NCBI GenBank assembly: GCA_026874595.1
Contig: CM049306.1
Coordinates: 83,354,142-83,418,141 of the forward strand
From: Sipunculus nudus
Taxonomy: Eukaryota > Annelida > Sipuncula > Golfingiida > Sipunculidae
Reading direction: 5' to 3'
DNA length: 64,000 nt
Part shown: in pieces, positions 36,815 through 45,395 of the stretch
Layout of the letters: the number at the start of each line of letters is the position of its first letter
How positions within the stretch are numbered: position 1 is the first letter of the stretch
Translations under genes and position numbers: made by a program
The notes under the pieces: generated by a model
Database searches by the model: none
Told to the model about the DNA's origin: nothing
The model's input: the letters and a program-made list of their open reading frames with translations, nothing else

Positions 36815-38806
36815 ATGCCATAGTCTGCTGTTTAGCGCCAACGTCAGCGTAGACAAAGATTACGACAATATGAGAATGAATACTCAAAATACAGAGAAGC
36901 TGCCATGAAAAGGAAGCGGAATCGAAATAAGATGATGGATGATGATGAATTGAAGGACCTGAGAAAGAGGACCAAGCTAGCTAGACGAGAGTGGCGGACA
37001 AAAAGTCGTGAAGTCAAGCATCGCAAACTGAATGATGACATTCATGTCCCAGTGGATGAAGTTTTCGAATTCCCGGGATCTTTGAGAAATTGCAGGCGTA
37101 AAGTTGAACAAGCTTTACCGAAAAGCTTGTTGTTCGGAGGCTGACTTGTGATGTACTGAACTTGAAGAGTAAACATCTCGACATTCGACAAAATCCAAGA
37201 ACATGGGTTAATGATGAAACTCTCTAAAGGTTAAAGAGTTCTATAAACTGGATTCTATTTCTCGCGTCAGACCGTTGAAAGCAGATGTAACCACGCGATC
37301 AGGTATCCAGATGGTACGAAGGAAAAGATGCAGAGGATACACATGACTATAACAAGAAGCGAAGTGTTTGAGGCATTTAAAGTGGAAAATCCAAATACTA
37401 TGATTGGGAAATAAAAGTTTTCAGAGATTCGCCCTCGTAATGTACTCCTGTCTTCAAAGATGCCGCACAATGTTTGTGGTCGCATGTACCACATAATATT
37501 TTCCTGATGTTCTAGAGCCAACAGCGCTTTAACCCTGATGTACCTCTTTGTTGAATGGAAATTTCTTAGTCCTTTGTGTCTCCGATGTTAAATCAGAAGA
37601 ATGCATGTCCAGCAACTGCACAGAATGCAAGGACCAAAAACTCTTCCAGCAGAACATCGTTAGTAAGCTAGACCTGACTGGCAGAATCAAATGGTGCCAG
37701 TGGGAGGAAGACGAATCTGGCTTTCTGGAGAAGAAGCCCTCGCTGGGAACGGTAGAAGACGCAACGGACAACTTGAGCGCACACTTTTAAAGTTCCCTTT
37801 TCATGTCTTTATCAAAAGGAAACATGTTAGCAGCAAAAGAGGCTTACAGCACAACATGCGTGCTGCAGATGGACTTTTATGAGAACTTCACTGTTTCTGC
37901 ACAGGATGAAATCCAGTCCGCTCATTGTATAGCAGAGACATTGTATACGGTTACCACCTGGCATAACACCCATTATCCTGGCCTATATATAGGAAAAGAC
38001 CTGCCTGTGGTTAACATTGTGATAATCTGGACCGACGGACCAAGCATTCAATAAAAGATTATGTATATATTTGCTCTAATCCATAAGCTCCAAGAAGATT
38101 TCGAGCTCGGAATAATATGGAACTGTTTTGCCACCAGCCACGGGAAAGGGCCCAATTATGTAATTGGTGGACAAGCCAAACGAATTGTACATCAGATAAT
38201 AATGACAAGGAAAAGAGCAAAGGATCAGTGGAGCAGACTCATTCAATGGCATCATTCATCCCCGCCCTCAAAATCAGTACAGTTTCGCCTAGATGAAGCC
38301 CCAGATAAAGTTGCATCTGGTGTTGCTACCGACAAGAATGGTGAACCTATGATAGAATTTGTTTCAGATGAATTCTCTGTTGTGCAAGCTCCAAAGGCCA
38401 CAAAACCCATTGATGCACCCCCCCCCCCCCCGCCCCTCTCATCCAGGGACTAGATCACGATCTACCACAACGTTCTCACCGGAAAAAGCAACAGTAAAGA
38501 AAACGAAATCGGCTGCCAGCGACAAAGTGACAGCCAGGAGTGAGTAGTATCCATGTGCCAAGTGTGATTGGGCCTTAAGAGACGAAAATTATCCTAAAAA
38601 AATCGTGATGACTGGTTGAAGTGCAGTGTTTGCAAAAATGGTTCCATGAAATATATGCAGAAGACATTGGTATAATAGATGACACAGATAATTTTACTTG
38701 CATGAATTTCTTATTGACCATGAACTCTGTCAACAAAAGAAGTGTTCTTTTCCTGTTATCAACTAAAGGGCCGGTGGTCATGCGGGGAATATCTTTATTA
38801 CTTATA
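36815..38806 (+). pseudogene. Relic of a transposase-like gene of the outer element
   Basis: After a TTTTCAG acceptor, an ATG at 36815 opens a basic region RQRQRRQRLRQYENEYSKYR with many Arg/Lys. Further on come a Cys cluster ECMSSNCTECKDQK (37578 on), WCQWEEDESGF, GTVEDATDNLSAH, FPFHVFIKRKHVSSK, MDFYENFTVSAQDEIQSAHC (37869 on), IIWTDGPSIQ, YIFALIHKLQEDFEL and WNCFATSHGKGP. It closes with a Cys/His tail (YPCAKCDWAL ... WLKCSVCK ... WFHE). I recognise this order from multicopy uncharacterised animal proteins. The D (DFxEN), D (TDGP) and SHGKG blocks look like an RNase-H-type catalytic core (inference). Stops (including a TAG two codons after the ATG and TAA after PSIQ) and several frameshifts kill it. 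Confidence 0.7.
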
Positions 38807-38807
38807 A

Positions 38808-39300
38808 TAGTCAAGCAGATCCATGCAGAAAAGCATAAGAATTGTGGGTTTTGTGGAAAAAACATGAAATTTTGCACACATAATTTTCAATAGTTTTCTA
38901 TACTGAAAAATATTGGATATGGAGCCAATCGCGAAAATTCAAAATGGCCGCCATTTTCCAAGATGGCGGACATGAGTCATGAAAAATCCCTAATAAATAA
39001 TTAAAAAATCAGATTCGATGATATCTGCCTGAAAATTTGCACTAATGTGGAGATTTAAATAAAGAAGAATACAAGATGTGTAAACAATTAACAAATTCAA
39101 AATGGCCGCCATTTTCCAAGATGGCGGACGAATTATGAATAATCTCGAAAATAATCCGAACAATTTTGGATTTGTTAAAAAAAAATGCATGAAGACTTGC
39201 ACTTATGTGGAGATTGTAATAAACAAAACAGAAGCTGCACCTGCAATTGAAAAAGTGGTCGCCATTTTCCAAGATGGCGGACATTGCGCAAAACTATAAT
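38808..39300 (+). repeat. Left terminal inverted repeat with three 155-bp tandem subunits
   Basis: The terminal part (to about 39145) is inverted-repeated at 45050-45367. The subunit contains the hairpin CCGCCATTTTCCAAGATGGC plus GG at 38948-38969, 39106-39127 and (one base changed) 39259-39280. Each hairpin is preceded by GAGATT-AATAAA or GCGAAAATTCAAAATGG-like text. The third subunit extends inward beyond the inverted-repeat part. Confidence 0.85.
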
Positions 39301-39724
39301 TCGATATGCGCGGTTGTACGTATCATCGCTGCAACGGCAAATATCGCATACATGTCTTTTACTTACTTATTGAAAGAATTGTATCAAAATAATGTACATG
39401 TATCTAATAGACAATCTACCTGTCAATCGTAAAGAGCACGAAATACTCCTAACTATAAATAATTATTTTAATTCCATTTTGATATTATTTTCATGAAGGA
39501 AATAGTGTAATTTGAAGTACATCAGAAATTGGGTGTAAAATGTTAGCGTTGACTTGGTACGTACGTATGCGTGTTTATGTTATGAATGAAAGTTTATGAC
39601 AAGGTATGTTTGAATTCAGTTCTAAAATACCCCACATTTAATTCTATGTTTGCATGTATTTGTAGGCACAGTCAAAGTACAGAGAATACATGTCTGACGA
39701 GTAACATTCCCAGAAGTATTCACT

Positions 39725-42700
39725 ATGTCTGAGGCACAATCCAATGTTGAAGCTGCATCGGCAGATTCTTCCACCTGCCAGTTGGAATAGGACAAGTGCG
39801 TTATATGTCAACAAAATACATCAGAGGTACTTCAGTGTCCAATGGACTCAAAACGTACAGACATCGATGCAGGACTTGGATACAGCACACTGTCGAACAA
39901 TGTCAGACGTTTTCATGAACTTAGTTGTTTACCAGTAAAACCGAAATTTGACGTTTCAAAAATTGAACTAAGCACACTAGTTGAGACCTTCAAAGAAAAA
40001 CAGGCGAAACTGCACAAGACATGTAACACCCTCTTCAATAAAACAAAGCTACTTCGAGCTGAGAAAAGAAAATCTACTGAAACCGAAAGTGAAGCCAGCA
40101 GCATTACCAAGAAATGTACCCGGAAGGCGTGTAGTACTGTTGCTGCCGGTCCAGAGGATGCCTGCTTTTTCTGTGATGACACATCCGGGGACCTGCACAA
40201 AGTGGCAACGTTTCGCCTCGATCAACGTGTCAGAAAGTGTGCGTCTATGTTGGAAGATAGCCGATTACTTGGCAAACTTAGTGCCGGTGATATGATCGCA
40301 CAGGATGCGGTATACCACATCAGCTGTCTGTGCACATTATATAAGAAAGCTGACAGAATGCAGTCCAGTAAAGACGAGAGCAGCAAAGAGAGAAGACTTC
40401 ATGGTATAGTTCTAGCAGAACTGCTGTCATACATAGAAGATACGAAGCTTGACAATACAACGGAGACCAACGTATTCAAGTTAGCGGACCTCGGTAAGAT
40501 GTACACATCCCGCTTTGAACAACTGGGTGGTGCTATGAAAACTCGACTCCATACCACTGAGCTCAAGAATAGAATCCTGGCACATTTTGAGGATATGGAA
40601 GCCCACAGACAAGGTCGTGATGTCTATCTTGCTTTCAAGGATGACGTTGGCTTTGCACTAAAGATGGCCTTTGAAAAAGATTATGATGACGAAGCCATCA
40701 CCCTCAGCCAGGCAGCAAAAATTGTTTGTAAAGATATGCTCGACGCCGACAAAACAGTATTCAGTGGTACATTTGACAGTCAGTGTCAAGAAACAGCTGT
40801 GCCACAATCCCTTGTAACCCTGATTGCAATGATCTTAGGTGGGCCAAATATTGTGACACAATCTGAAAACGTGGTCGAGACACAGGCAGTCCTTACCATA
40901 GCACAGTTGCTACAGTACAACTGCACCATTCGTCGGCGTGAAGGATCTACTGCCTCTTACAATAGCCGGAATCGTGAGCCTCCAGTAGCAGTATACGTTG
41001 GACTGTTGCTGCATGCAGAAACCAGGAAACGGGGACTTATTGACAAGATGCATACTCTAGGAATCTCGGTCTCCTACGATCGTGTATTGGCTCTGTCCAC
41101 TGACATGGGAAACGCTGTCTGCGATAGATTTGAGGAAGAGCAAGTCGTTTGTCCCGCTATACTTAGAACAGATCTCTTCACAACCGCGGCCGTCGACAAT
41201 ATTGACCATAATCCGAGTTCAAACACATCTCAGGGATCCCTACATGGTACAGGTATATCCATATTCCAACACACTGATCTTGGTTCCAAGGGCAAGGAGC
41301 GCACACAGGTGATCCTGAATCCCGACGGTACGCGTCGTAAGTCAATCGCGCCACTCCCTGAAAGTTATACATGTGTCCCACCAGCGTCACTTCGAGAGAA
41401 GGAGCCCACAGTACCAGACGTCAACACCCCACTGATAGGAGCATGTACAACAATACCTGGAGCCATCCAAGAACAAGAAAGGTTTGTGTTGTGCTACTGA
41501 CGCAGAGTATGATGAAATACATATTCATATACATGGATGTATGTAGTAGCCTAGACCTAGCGAGTAGATTAAACTACCATAGTTCGTACTTCGTACTATG
41601 TAGGTGTGTGTATGCAATAGCAGTGGAATTAGGGAAGTTCATAAAAGTAATAGAATGCTCATAACCCTGCTTCGCTATTGGTGTTAGCATAGATGGTAGC
41701 GCACAAATTGTAATACATGTAGTGGCGGTGGATTACTATTACATAGCTTGTCCTAACGTTTCTTTTTAGGTGGCTCAATCATGTAAAACAAATCCATGAA
41801 GATGACAAGGAGCCAGACATGTGCATGTCATGGGCAGCATTCCACGCAAGCAATGTGACAGAAGAAGTATCGTCAACCGACATTAATGCATTGTTGCAAC
41901 TGTTTCGGGATCAAGCTCACTCACCTGCAATGATTAAACACTCAATGAATATCGTTAAACAAAACGTAAATTTGCTCAATCCTGGCCAGATTCCTGTTGT
42001 AGTTTTTAATCAACCACTGTATGCCTTAGCAAAGCTTGTACAGTGGAACTGGCCAGACACACACGGTGAGAGTCATTTTGTAGTGATGCTTGGTGGTTTA
42101 CATACAGAAATGGCAGCATTTAGCACACTTGGTGATTGGATGGAGGGCAGTGGATGGACCGCTGCTCTCACGGAGGCAAATATTGCAAATCCAGGCACAG
42201 CCGACTCTTTCTTGAAGGCGACACACGTATCACGAACCAGACATGCGCACCAGGTGACCGCTTGTTGTCTGCATATCCTTATGCAAAAGGCTTACGTTCA
42301 ACATAAAGAGGGCCTTTTCGACAATGAAGACCTACCCACTTTCGATGCCTGGAAAGCCACGATGATATCGGAGCATCCTCAGTTCCAGTACTGGTCGTTA
42401 ACTCTGGATTTTGAGTTGGCTATTCTCAACTTCGTGCAGTCTATCCGACAGGGAAACTTTCAGCTGTACATTGACGCTTTGGTGAAGCTGATGCCATAGT
42501 TCTGTGCCTTGGACCACGTGAACTATGCACGCTGGGTCCCAGTTCATATTCGGGATATGCTGGCCCTCCAAGAAACACATCCTGATGTGGCTGCACACTT
42601 CAAACAAGGCCATTTTGCTGTCCCTGAAGACTTTCTCTGCAATTTCCATAGATCACGCTCACGAACAAAATAACAAACTTGTGAAGGGTGATGGAGGCGC

Positions 42701-44612
42701 AATTGGCTTAACGGAAAATTCGTCGGCACTTCGTCGCTGGATGGTTTCTGGCCCGGAAATTTCTCGTGTCATACACGAATTTGAAGCATCTCAGGAACTG
42801 ATCAAAGTGAACCAAAGTAAAGGTCCTAATATCCTACATCATGACCGGACAAAAGGGGTACAGAAAACCTTCAAGAAGCAAGTCTCTGATTTGTGCACTA
42901 CTATTTAGAAGATAGGAAATCCATTCCTCGAACAGAGCAAAGACTTGCTTGTTCTAGATAGTAGAGATATCCTTGATGAGCAGGTGGCAGCAACTGTCAA
43001 AAACATCGAAAGTATTGGGCAAGATCAATACCAGCAGTTCGTTCAAGCCAGGCTAGGCACATCAGAAGCAAGAACAAGAACACTCTTCGACCCAATTCGC
43101 AAAAACAAGTTACCATTGTTCAGTCGACCACCAGTGAAACAGTTGTCCAAAGAAAAACAACAGATATGTTCTCTGAAGCAGAATTGTTCATTGTTCTCAC
43201 AGCTGTATGTTTCCTGCCAGGTGCGCGGTGGAGACCTTGATGAAATTTTTCAACACGAAAATCAGTCTAGTCCGCCATCGTTGTCACAATTTGGAGAAAT
43301 CAGGTCAGGAACGAAGTCAACCTTGGTATCATGCATTGAGAAGGGGTTAGCAAACACAGACGTGAGACCAGAAGTTGATGCTATACTCCTCGACGGTGCA
43401 GCTCTAGTCAACATGCTAAAGCCTGGTGTTTGCAAGACTTTCCTGCGCTATGCGCAAGATGTATTCTTGAAATACATCAGGTCATAACTGCAAGAAGTCA
43501 AAAGAATCGACCTCGTTTGGGATGAGTATCTGCCAAATAGCCTGAAATCGACAACAAGAAGCAGACGTGGAAAGGGTATTAGGAGACGTGTAACTCCGGA
43601 AAGTAAGCTGCCTGGCAACTGGGAAGCATTTCTCAGACTTGACGAGAACAAGAAAGAACTATTTAAGTTCTTGGCAGAGCAAGCCATGACGGTTATTTCT
43701 GCTGGAAAAGAAGTTGTATCAAGTCATGGTGGCAACACTCTCAGCACTTCACAACGTAGCCTCAGTGAGATGTCTCCATGCACGCAGGAAGAGGCCGATA
43801 CGCGTCTTCTGCTTCATGCCGCAGATTGTGCCAGGCAGGGTTGTACCCGACTGATGATTCGCACAGTCGACACAGATGTCCTCGTGATAGCAGCAGCTGT
43901 TTTCCATCATTTAAATCTACAAGGTGTAGCTGAATTGTGGGTAGCATTCGGCACTGGGAAATCATTTCGCTATATTGCTGTGCATGCTATTGTTGCGTCG
44001 TTGGGCCAAGAGAAAGCCAGCGCTCTGCCCGTCTTCCATGCATTTACTGGCTCGGATCAAACTTCCTTCTTTGCTGGTAGAGGAAAGGCCACGGCATGGG
44101 AAACGTGGAATATCTACAACGACGTCACTAAAGCTTTCATTGCTCTCAACACAGCCCCAGACATTCAGGCTGTAATAGAGAACATGCCTGTTTTGCAGTG
44201 ATTTGTTGCTCTAATGTATGACCGAACCAGCACCTGCATGAGCGTTAATGAAGCACGAAAGGCATTGTTCACCAAAAAGGGAAGAGCCATGGATGCTATC
44301 CCGCCCACTGCTGCAGCACTACTGCAACATACCAAACGTGTAGCATATCAGGCTGGATATATCTGTGGACAGGCCTTGTCTTCAACAGTGGAACTGCCTT
44401 GTCCGAGTGAGTGGGGTTGGAAAAAATCCCCCAATCAATCCTGGGAATCTGAATGGACAACACTTCCTGAAGCATCAAAGTCTTGTCTTCAGCTCACAAA
44501 ATGCGGATGCAAAGTGCAGAATGGTTTTAGAGGAAGATGTAAATGTGTCAAAGCAAACCTGAGATGCACAGCGTTCTGTGCTTGCGGTGGCGATTGTGAG
44601 CGCTCAGCATAA
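39725..44612 (+). pseudogene. Transposase-nuclease gene of the Academ-like element (two exons, multiply broken)
   Basis: Start ATG 39725. Intron 41482-41769 (AAAG|GTTTGT ... TCTTTTTAG) joins AG|G TGG as Arg-Trp. Order: KCVICQ and QCP; CFFCDDTSGDLH; DDE-like blocks FTTAAVDNIDHNPSS, GGLHTEMAAFSTLGDWMEGS and IDHAHEQNNKLVKGDGGAIG; then an XPG/FEN1-like nuclease (AILLDGAALVNMLKP, RIDLVWDEYLPNSLKSTTR, EEADTRLLLHAADCARQG, RTVDTDVLVIA, HAFTGSDQTSFFAGRGKAT); then a tail with eight Cys (KCGCKVQNGFRGRCKCVKAN ... FCACGGDC). In-frame stops: TAG 39788, TAG 42497 (in MP-FCALDHV, where Trp fits), TAG 42906, TAA 43485, TGA 44199. There is one frameshift at about 42610-42640. Length is about 1,530 codons. Presumably a cut-and-paste transposase with an accessory nuclease; inactive here. 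Confidence 0.85.
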
Positions 44613-45049
44613 CTTTATAGTGGCTCCTAATCTAGTGTATGTACATCTGCGCTACACAATGTATGTATGTAGCAAAAGCAAAAGAACACTGACATTTTGA
44701 CATCCTTCTTGTTTCTAATCGCATAACTCTCTTCTGGTTATTTTTATCATTGGCAACAAAACAAAAGAGTTCTAAAGTAATAAAAAATAAAAATAAATAA
44801 AATATATCACAATCCACTTATCATTTTATGCATTCCATTTTCAAAAGAAACTTAACACTTACCTGTCTCACCTTGCAAATATCCAGTCGTCTTCGGCTGT
44901 ACATTCCACTGCATGTAGCCAGCGTTGTCCTCGGATGTACAATACACTATCTTGCATGTCTTAAATGTAACTAAAATCACCTCTATATAGCTTTTGTTTT
45001 CACAGCGATGTGATGTTGGGATTTTACTCAATTGGTAGGGCCTATAGCT

Positions 45050-45367
45050 ATAATTGCCATAATTCGTGTCCGCCATCTTGGAAAATTTTGTATTTTTTTC
45101 AATTGTTTACACATCTTGTTTTTTTCTTCATTAAAATTTCCACATTAGTGCAAAAATTCAGGCATATATCATCAAATCTGATTTTTTAATTATTTATTAG
45201 GGATTTTTAATGACTCATGTCTGCCATCTTGGAAAAAGGCGGCCATTTTGAATTTTTCGCGATTGGCTCCATATCTAATAATTTTCAGTACAGAAAACTC
45301 TACAAGTGTGCCAAACTTCATGCTTTTTCCACAAAACCCACAATTGTTACACGGATCTGCTTGACTA
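45050..45367 (-). repeat. Right terminal inverted repeat with two 155-bp subunits
   Basis: The reverse complement matches the left repeat from TAGTCAAGCAGATCC through GGATATGGAGCCAATCGCGA and AATCCCTAATAAATAATT to GGACACGAATTATG. The hairpin motif appears at 45221-45242 (CTGCCATCTTGG...GGCGG) and in half form at 45070-45081. That is one subunit fewer than on the left. Confidence 0.85.
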
Positions 45368-45395
45368 TAACAGGTACACGCCACATTTCGTTGGT

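What the first reader, a model, noticed from the sequence alone, without database searches (positions are those of the whole stretch)
43383..44612. Academ-like transposon gene carries a full FEN1/XPG-type nuclease layout and an eight-cysteine tail
All the acidic positions expected of a FEN1/XPG nuclease appear in order after the transposase part: LLDGAALV (Asp 43392), LVWDEYLP (Asp 43521), EEADTR (43791-43799), VDTDVL (Asp 43869 and 43875) and FTGSDQ (Asp 44055, followed by a Gly-rich GRGK turn like the helix-turn-helix of FEN1). A KCGC...CACGGDC tail with exactly eight Cys follows. Seen: the motifs and their order. Known: Academ elements are reported with XPG-like and Cys8 domains. Inferred: one fused polypeptide in which the nuclease trims or processes DNA during transposition.
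Basis: partly seen in the sequence, partly recalled or inferred. Interest (0 to 1): 0.85.

Follow-up and report, generated by a model that had tools for sequence, protein, structure and literature searches.

The report
Jumping gene with fused flap-type nuclease
A dead copy of a young animal DNA transposon whose single large protein carries, behind its transposase part, a nuclease domain predicted to fold like the DNA-repair enzymes EXO1 and FEN1; elements of this kind (Academ) are already known to carry a nuclease, so the find is a well-supported new member rather than a new kind.

Summary
Window 38808-45367 is a 6.56-kb terminal-inverted-repeat transposon; 5 of 6 copies with both ends readable show a clean 3-bp target duplication. 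The window copy is dead: five in-frame stops, a frameshift, and Asn at a presumed catalytic Asp of the transposase. A close copy, L011, reads as one 1,535-aa protein over two inferred exons, so transposase-like and nuclease parts are fused. The nuclease gives no XPG/PIN family hit by HMMER, but its AlphaFold model (pLDDT 79.5) matches EXO1 (Z 15.8 over 260 residues), FEN1, XPG, GEN1 and T5 FEN; all 50 listed rows are 5'-nucleases. Correction: the tail is a CXC-like cluster with nine Cys in this family's close copies; eight here follows a Cys-to-Phe change. The element fits AcademX (nuclease, 3-4 bp duplications; PMC10045372). Proposed mechanism, inferred only: the nuclease removes 5' flaps or makes the second-strand cut during transposition. 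The DDE fold was not confirmed (pLDDT 47.5), and no Academ reference sequence was available.

The parts
38808..45367 (+). Whole Academ-like DNA transposon copy (6,560 bp), dead
   Evidence: Alignment with close copies ends sharply here; 0.75-3.36% pairwise DNA divergence among seven copies
38805..38807 (.). Left target-site duplication TAA
45368..45370 (.). Right target-site duplication TAA
38808..39095 (+). Left terminal inverted repeat, starting TAGTCAAGCAGATCC
   Evidence: Inverted repeats I1, I2, I3, I8, 82-91% complementary
45095..45367 (-). Right terminal inverted repeat
39725..41481 (+). Exon 1 (inferred): N-terminal Cys/His clusters and first part of a presumed DDE transposase; stop at 39788-39790 in this copy
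   Evidence: ORF 39791-41500; comparison with copy L011
41195..41197 (+). Presumed first catalytic Asp of the transposase (VDNIDH)
   Evidence: DNID also in L011, L018 and L019
41482..41769 (+). Inferred 288-bp GT-AG intron
   Evidence: Same length in L011, where removing it gives one 1,535-aa frame; no transcript seen
41770..44612 (+). Exon 2 (inferred): rest of transposase, nuclease, CXC-like tail; broken here by stops at 42497-42499, 42906-42908, 43485-43487 and 44199-44201 and a frameshift between 42499 and 42663
   Evidence: one 957-aa open frame in L011
42008..42010 (+). Presumed second catalytic position of the transposase: Asn here, Asp in all 8 rows of A3
   Evidence: D342 invariant in A3, which does not include the window
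42663..42665 (+). Presumed catalytic Glu (DHAHEQNN)
   Evidence: E599 invariant in 8 of 8 rows of A3
43311..44408 (+). FEN1/EXO1-type 5'-nuclease domain (model residues 137-502)
43392..43394 (+). Acidic residue 1 (model D164; EXO1 D30 by order)
   Evidence: 27 of 27 rows Asp; EXO1 numbers counted on the PDB sequence
43521..43523 (+). Acidic residue 2 (model D207; EXO1 D78), followed by near-invariant K215, R219, R222
43791..43799 (+). Acidic residues 3 and 4 (model E297, D299; EXO1 E150, D152)
43869..43877 (+). Acidic residues 5 and 6 (model D323, D325; EXO1 D171, D173)
44055..44057 (+). Acidic residue 7 (model D385), followed by invariant G394-K395
   Evidence: 38 of 38 rows
44502..44597 (+). 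Cys-rich tail, CXC (tesmin/TSO1)-like; Phe at 44526-44528 where L011 has Cys
   Evidence: PF03638 on six typed tails: E 2.8e-4, 8.5e-4, 0.022 (the window's own tail) and 0.12 for four, none for two; all under the cut-off of 23.5 bits; Cys counts

Best explanation
This is a recently mobile but now dead copy of an Academ-type (AcademX-like) terminal-inverted-repeat DNA transposon. Its protein, open throughout in copy L011, is one polypeptide: N-terminal Cys/His clusters, a presumed DDE transposase, a FEN1/EXO1-type 5'-nuclease domain and a CXC-like zinc cluster. Shown: the element ends, the 3-bp duplications, the open fused frame in L011, the nuclease fold by prediction, and the conservation of its seven metal-ligand positions. 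Inferred: the transposase joins the 3' ends of the element to target DNA, and the tethered 5'-nuclease recognises the branched junction and cuts the 5' strand (removing the flap of old flanking DNA, or making the second-strand cut that frees the element), while the CXC-like tail holds DNA. Probabilities: transposon and nuclease-domain identity about 0.95; AcademX as the right name about 0.85; active nuclease in the mobile element about 0.85; flap or second-strand cutting as its role about 0.4.
For: Termini and 3-bp duplications in 5 of 6 copies; 14 matches to the 18-bp terminus genome-wide, 13 of them at the seven copies and none for the reversed pattern; fused 1,535-aa frame; AlphaFold nuclease model pLDDT 79.5, pTM 0.74; the 50 listed PDB entries by VIA-align are all 5'-nuclease superfamily (EXO1 Z 15.8, FEN1 14.5, XPG 12.9, GEN1 12.6, XRN1 12.2, T5 FEN 11.8, a second look at Foldseek's own candidates); Foldseek's best ten are Rat1, Xrn1, Rad2, plastid exonuclease 1, T5 D15 and FEN1; seven acidic positions rank 1-7 of 36; between lineages third codon positions differ about twice as often as first and second (249 against 128 and 108 over 362 codons, L011 and L010), as expected under purifying selection; profile-profile match to bacterial/T5 5'-nucleases pairing EAD with EAD and the GRGK turn with the helix-turn-helix turn; published AcademX: nuclease and 3-4 bp duplications.
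Against: No XPG, PIN or FEN family by HMMER for the window pieces or any of 38 related rows, and nothing in the PDB by sequence profile; the one PIN-like hint is NYN at E 0.0079 in 1 of 38 rows. Profile comparison with a thin host XPG-family profile failed (score 17.4, below the best of 200 shuffles, 28.4). The bacterial comparison has probability only 16%. Foldseek E-values are modest (1.3e-4 at best), TM-scores 0.18-0.53, rmsd often large. Some distant rows left out of the alignment have lost ligands (L042, L048). The DDE fold was not confirmed (pLDDT 47.5). L012 lacks a clean duplication. No biochemical evidence for any role of the nuclease.
Confidence: 0.75

Rival explanations
1. The nuclease fold is real but catalytically idle: it serves as a structural module that binds branched DNA or the transposon ends.
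For: Many copies are decayed, two distant rows have lost ligands, and no activity data exist.
Against: The seven metal-ligand positions and the K/R residues after the second Asp are among the most conserved positions in rows mostly 24-35% identical to L011; an idle domain would be expected to lose ligands while keeping the fold.
Confidence: 0.12
2. The nuclease acts beside or after transposition (for example on replication forks, Holliday junctions or DNA ends, favouring repair and copy gain), like GEN1 or EXO1, rather than on the transposition intermediate.
For: EXO1 and GEN1 are among the closest folds.
Against: Fusion to the transposase-like part in the five long frames seen and the published link of nuclease with short duplications (AcademX 3-4 bp, AcademH 9-10 bp) point to the transposition reaction itself.
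Confidence: 0.3
3. The similarity is chance: acidic motifs in an unrelated fold.
For: No HMMER family hit.
Against: Fold matches from residue 2 of EXO1 onwards over about 260 residues, in all 50 listed rows; the positions rank 1-7 of 36 in conservation.
Confidence: 0.03

Closest known systems
AcademX lineage of the Academ DNA transposon superfamily
   Same: Terminal inverted repeats, 3-bp duplications, transposase-like protein plus nuclease (AcademX features from PMC10045372, discussion section read). Academ is reported as expanded in bivalves, with 100 curated consensus elements (PMC10294476, passages read).
   Different: No published Academ sequence could be compared. In this family's close copies the tail has nine Cys.
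EXO1 / FEN1 / XPG / GEN1 5'-nuclease family
   Same: Predicted fold, order of seven metal ligands with E-x-D and D-x-D spacings as in EXO1 E150/D152 and D171/D173, basic residues after the second Asp, Gly-Lys turn after the last Asp.
   Different: 8-17% identity in the structural alignments, not seen by the Pfam XPG models, fused behind a transposase-like part, about 18 more residues between the second and third acidic sites than EXO1.
AcademH lineage (helicase-bearing)
   Same: Same superfamily by publication.
   Different: Encodes a helicase and makes 9-10 bp duplications; no helicase family was found in the L011 parts scanned.
Tn7 TnsA (recalled, no call)
   Same: A second nuclease cuts the 5' strand while the transposase handles the 3' strand: analogy for the proposed role only.
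   Different: Unrelated fold, separate protein (recalled).

Membership tests
AcademX DNA transposons | Terminal inverted repeats | tested here: met
AcademX DNA transposons | 3-4 bp target-site duplications | tested here: met
   3 bp in 5 of 6 copies with both ends (TAA, GAG, TTT, CAT, TAT); L012 not clean
AcademX DNA transposons | Encodes a nuclease (not a helicase) | tested here: met
   Nuclease fold by prediction; no helicase family in the L011 parts scanned
AcademX DNA transposons | Academ-type DDE transposase | tested here: inconclusive
   Conserved D, D, E candidates, but the model is poor and no Academ reference sequence was available
   Of 16 rows with a Cys-rich end, nine Cys in 8, eight in 7, seven in 1
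FEN1/EXO1/XPG 5'-nucleases | 5'-nuclease (PIN-like) fold | tested here: met
   EXO1 Z 15.8, 260 residues, rmsd 3.5, on a predicted model
FEN1/EXO1/XPG 5'-nucleases | Seven conserved acidic metal ligands in order | tested here: met
   exceptions
FEN1/EXO1/XPG 5'-nucleases | Match to Pfam XPG_N / XPG_I at the curated cut-off | tested here: not met
   0 of 38 rows even at E <= 1; no place listed by the whole-genome XPG_I and XPG_N searches is a listed hit
FEN1/EXO1/XPG 5'-nucleases | Structure-specific 5' cleavage activity | not testable with these tools
   needs protein
CXC (tesmin/TSO1-like) domain PF03638 | Score over the curated cut-off | tested here: not met
   Best 21.5 bits against 23.5; 4 of 6 tails give E 2.8e-4 to 0.12, 2 of 6 none

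The most novel reading that the evidence does not exclude
The fused EXO1/FEN1-type nuclease makes the 5'-strand cut of the transposition reaction, so that one polypeptide unites 3'-strand chemistry (DDE) and 5'-flap cutting, a eukaryotic single-chain counterpart of the two-enzyme TnsA/TnsB arrangement, and this sets the short 3-4 bp duplications of AcademX against the 9-10 bp of helicase-bearing AcademH.
Probability: 0.3. Interest if true: 0.7.

Novelty: new member of a known kind. Interest (0 to 1): 0.42.

Why it matters
It gives fold-level and conservation-level support that the nuclease of an Academ-type transposon is a true EXO1/FEN1-type enzyme, although the Pfam models of that family do not see it. 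It names the residues to change in a test, and it shows that the arrangement is one protein. That makes the question of what a flap-type nuclease does in transposition directly testable.

Tried and rejected
Rejected: that the window copy makes a working protein (five stops, one frameshift, Asn at a presumed catalytic Asp). Rejected: 'exactly eight Cys' as a trait of this family. Rejected: separate transposase and nuclease genes (long fused frames). Led nowhere: Pfam and NCBIfam on the nuclease and exon parts; PDB sequence searches; comparison with a four-sequence host XPG-family profile led by an Asteroid-like gene (17.4, best of 200 shuffles 28.4, reversed 17.1). Viral contigs and phages gave no relative of the nuclease, a search there with a host FEN1 piece for comparison sequences, also gave none. 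Prokaryote contigs gave one locus, L061. The DDE part was folded from only 8 rows and came out at pLDDT 47.5, so I did not search with that model. Alignment A2 misplaced exon 1 fragments and was replaced by A3. YN00 failed for 7 of 9 pairs; for those only codon-position counts are used, and the two that worked gave dN/dS of about 0.55 and 0.66. Within the young family differences do not favour third positions, as for neutral decay after insertion. In one search, 5 of 21 bacterial loci were dropped because the motif filter found no frame; the reversed control scored 23.4. For A1, loci L008-L051 (44) were considered and 37 kept by score, length and open frame; the 7 left out are told. One search listed 151 matches (a capped list), of which only part was fetched, mostly those with open frames. 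Literature: seven searches found no held paper that describes the Academ nuclease in detail; one search found no paper holding Academ, XPG and transposon as whole words. Kojima 2020, cited there as the AcademH/AcademX paper, is not held, so its content is known only through PMC10045372. Passages only were seen of PMC10294476, PMC10799480, PMC9587614 and PMC9783078. The FEN1/EXO1 roles of the acidic and basic residues, Tn7 TnsA, the Asteroid name and 'Cys8' are recalled.

Full report
WHAT WAS CHECKED. Each listed Asp/Glu codon is in the frame of the ORFs 42909-43487 and 43488-44201, which share one frame but are split by a TAA at 43485-43487; a TGA at 44199-44201 splits off the Cys tail. So the motif set is real but does not form one open frame in this copy.

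THE ELEMENT. Inverted repeats join about 38,800-39,095 with 45,095-45,376. Searching the host genome (1.43 Gb, unnamed) with the 237-aa nuclease piece lists 151 matches, a capped list, seven of them 93-100% identical including the window itself. Alignment with the close copies ends sharply at 38808 and 45367-45368 in those that keep their ends. Of the six copies with both ends readable (window, L011, L012, L013, L015, L016), five have an exact 3-bp duplication: TAA, GAG, TTT, CAT, TAT; L012 does not. The 18-bp terminus occurs 14 times in the genome with at most one mismatch, 13 times at these seven copies and once alone; the reversed pattern was not found. Pairwise DNA divergence of the seven is 0.75-3.36%, so the family moved recently.

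ONE PROTEIN. In L011 an open frame of 600 codons is followed, after an inferred 288-bp GT-AG intron, by an open frame of 957; joined they read as one 1,535-aa protein. Frames that run from the transposase-like part into or through the nuclease also occur in L014 (840, ends inside the domain), L017 (892), L018 (974) and L019 (1,229). The window copy has stops at 39788, 42497, 42906, 43485 and 44199, a frameshift between 42499 and 42663, and Asn (42008-42010) where L011 has the presumed second catalytic Asp. It is dead.

THE NUCLEASE. By sequence alone nothing convincing is found: no Pfam family of this kind for the window pieces; no XPG, PIN or FEN family at E <= 1 for any of 38 related rows, with a single NYN hint at 0.0079; nothing relevant in the PDB. 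An AlphaFold model of the L011 part (569 residues, 38-row alignment) is good (pLDDT 79.5, pTM 0.74). Foldseek against the PDB gives Rat1, Xrn1, Rad2, plastid exonuclease 1, T5 D15 and FEN1 as the first ten (E 1.3e-4 to 9.2e-4; TM-scores of the listed rows 0.18-0.53). VIA-align, a second look at Foldseek's candidates, gives EXO1 at Z 15.8 (260 residues, rmsd 3.5), FEN1 14.5, XPG 12.9, GEN1 12.6, XRN1 12.2 and T5 FEN 11.8; all 50 listed rows are this superfamily, and the match begins at residue 2 of EXO1.

THE ACIDIC SITES. Residue numbers counted on the human EXO1 PDB sequence are D30, D78, E150, D152, D171, D173; D225 is named in a PDB title. The element has D164, D207, E297, D299, D323, D325, D385 in the same order, with the same E-x-D and D-x-D spacings. 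Among 36 acidic residues of L011 between 137 and 502 these seven rank first to seventh in conservation. K215, R219 and R222, after the second Asp, are near-invariant (35/37, 36/37, 36/37), like the basic residues after D78 of EXO1 (an R92A structure is in the PDB list). G394 and K395, the turn after the last Asp, are invariant (38/38). Seven of 44 loci were left out of the alignment; added back, two keep all seven residues, one keeps the six it covers, one has Gln at 164, one has lost D325, one has lost D207 and D385, and one (L016) is seen only in fragments. Profile comparison with 16 bacterial polymerase 5'-nuclease domains and T5 D15 aligned EAD with EAD and the GRGK turn with the helix-turn-helix turn; its raw score of 34.3 exceeds the best of 150 shuffles (26.9) and the reversed control (23.4), but its probability is only 16%. 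A comparison with a thin host profile failed.

SELECTION. Between lineages about half identical in protein, third codon positions of the nuclease differ about twice as often as first or second (249 against 128 and 108 over 362 codons, L011 and L010). Within the young family differences do not favour third positions. This is the usual pattern of transposons: selection while they move, decay once inserted.

THE TAIL. L011 ends in CxCx5Cx3CxCx6Cx3CxCx3C, nine Cys; the window has Phe in place of the third. Of the 16 rows of A1 with a Cys-rich end, the cluster has nine Cys in 8, eight in 7 and seven in 1; four of these (L040, L044, L045, L046) lack the leading CxC. Pfam's CXC (tesmin/TSO1) model gives E 2.8e-4 and 8.5e-4 on two of six tails, weaker on two, none on two, always under its cut-off. 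I read it as a CXC-like zinc cluster that probably binds DNA (inference).

KNOWN OR NEW. A paper on IS481EU states that AcademX makes 3 or 4 bp and AcademH 9 or 10 bp duplications and links this to the nuclease and helicase they encode (PMC10045372, discussion section read). A bivalve survey reports Academ as expanded in bivalves (PMC10294476, passages read). The element fits AcademX in the features that I could test (terminal repeats, duplication length, nuclease). The transposase could not be compared with an Academ reference, and its fold prediction failed. I file it as a new member of a known kind.

MECHANISM. Most likely the transposase acts on the 3' strands and the tethered nuclease cuts the 5' strands of the branched intermediate. 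This is inference from the fold, the fusion and the published link with duplication length.

Noticed in passing
L061 1125-1962: A 3.4-kb contig filed under a Bathymodiolus gill symbiont encodes a relative of this nuclease (28% identity, query residues 293-568); probably mussel host DNA in the symbiont assembly (inference).
   Followed up: no
window 38935-39282 and 45068-45256: A 37-bp subterminal repeat (AAATTCAAAATGGCCGCCATTTTCCAAGATGGCGGAC) occurs three times inside the left end (81-100% alike) and, inverted, in whole or part about twice inside the right end; possible binding sites for the transposase or the CXC-like tail.
   Followed up: no
window 36836-38453: Short open frames left of the element that look like broken coding remnants, not identified.
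   Followed up: no
L060 (G000:C11:47165500-47169800): A 769-aa open frame with XPG_N and XPG_I matches that resembles the Asteroid family of XPG-like nucleases (name recalled); probably a host gene, used as a comparison.
   Followed up: partly
G000:C13:66943449-66943466: A lone copy of the element's 18-bp terminus; no second terminus and no nuclease hit was listed near it.
   Followed up: no
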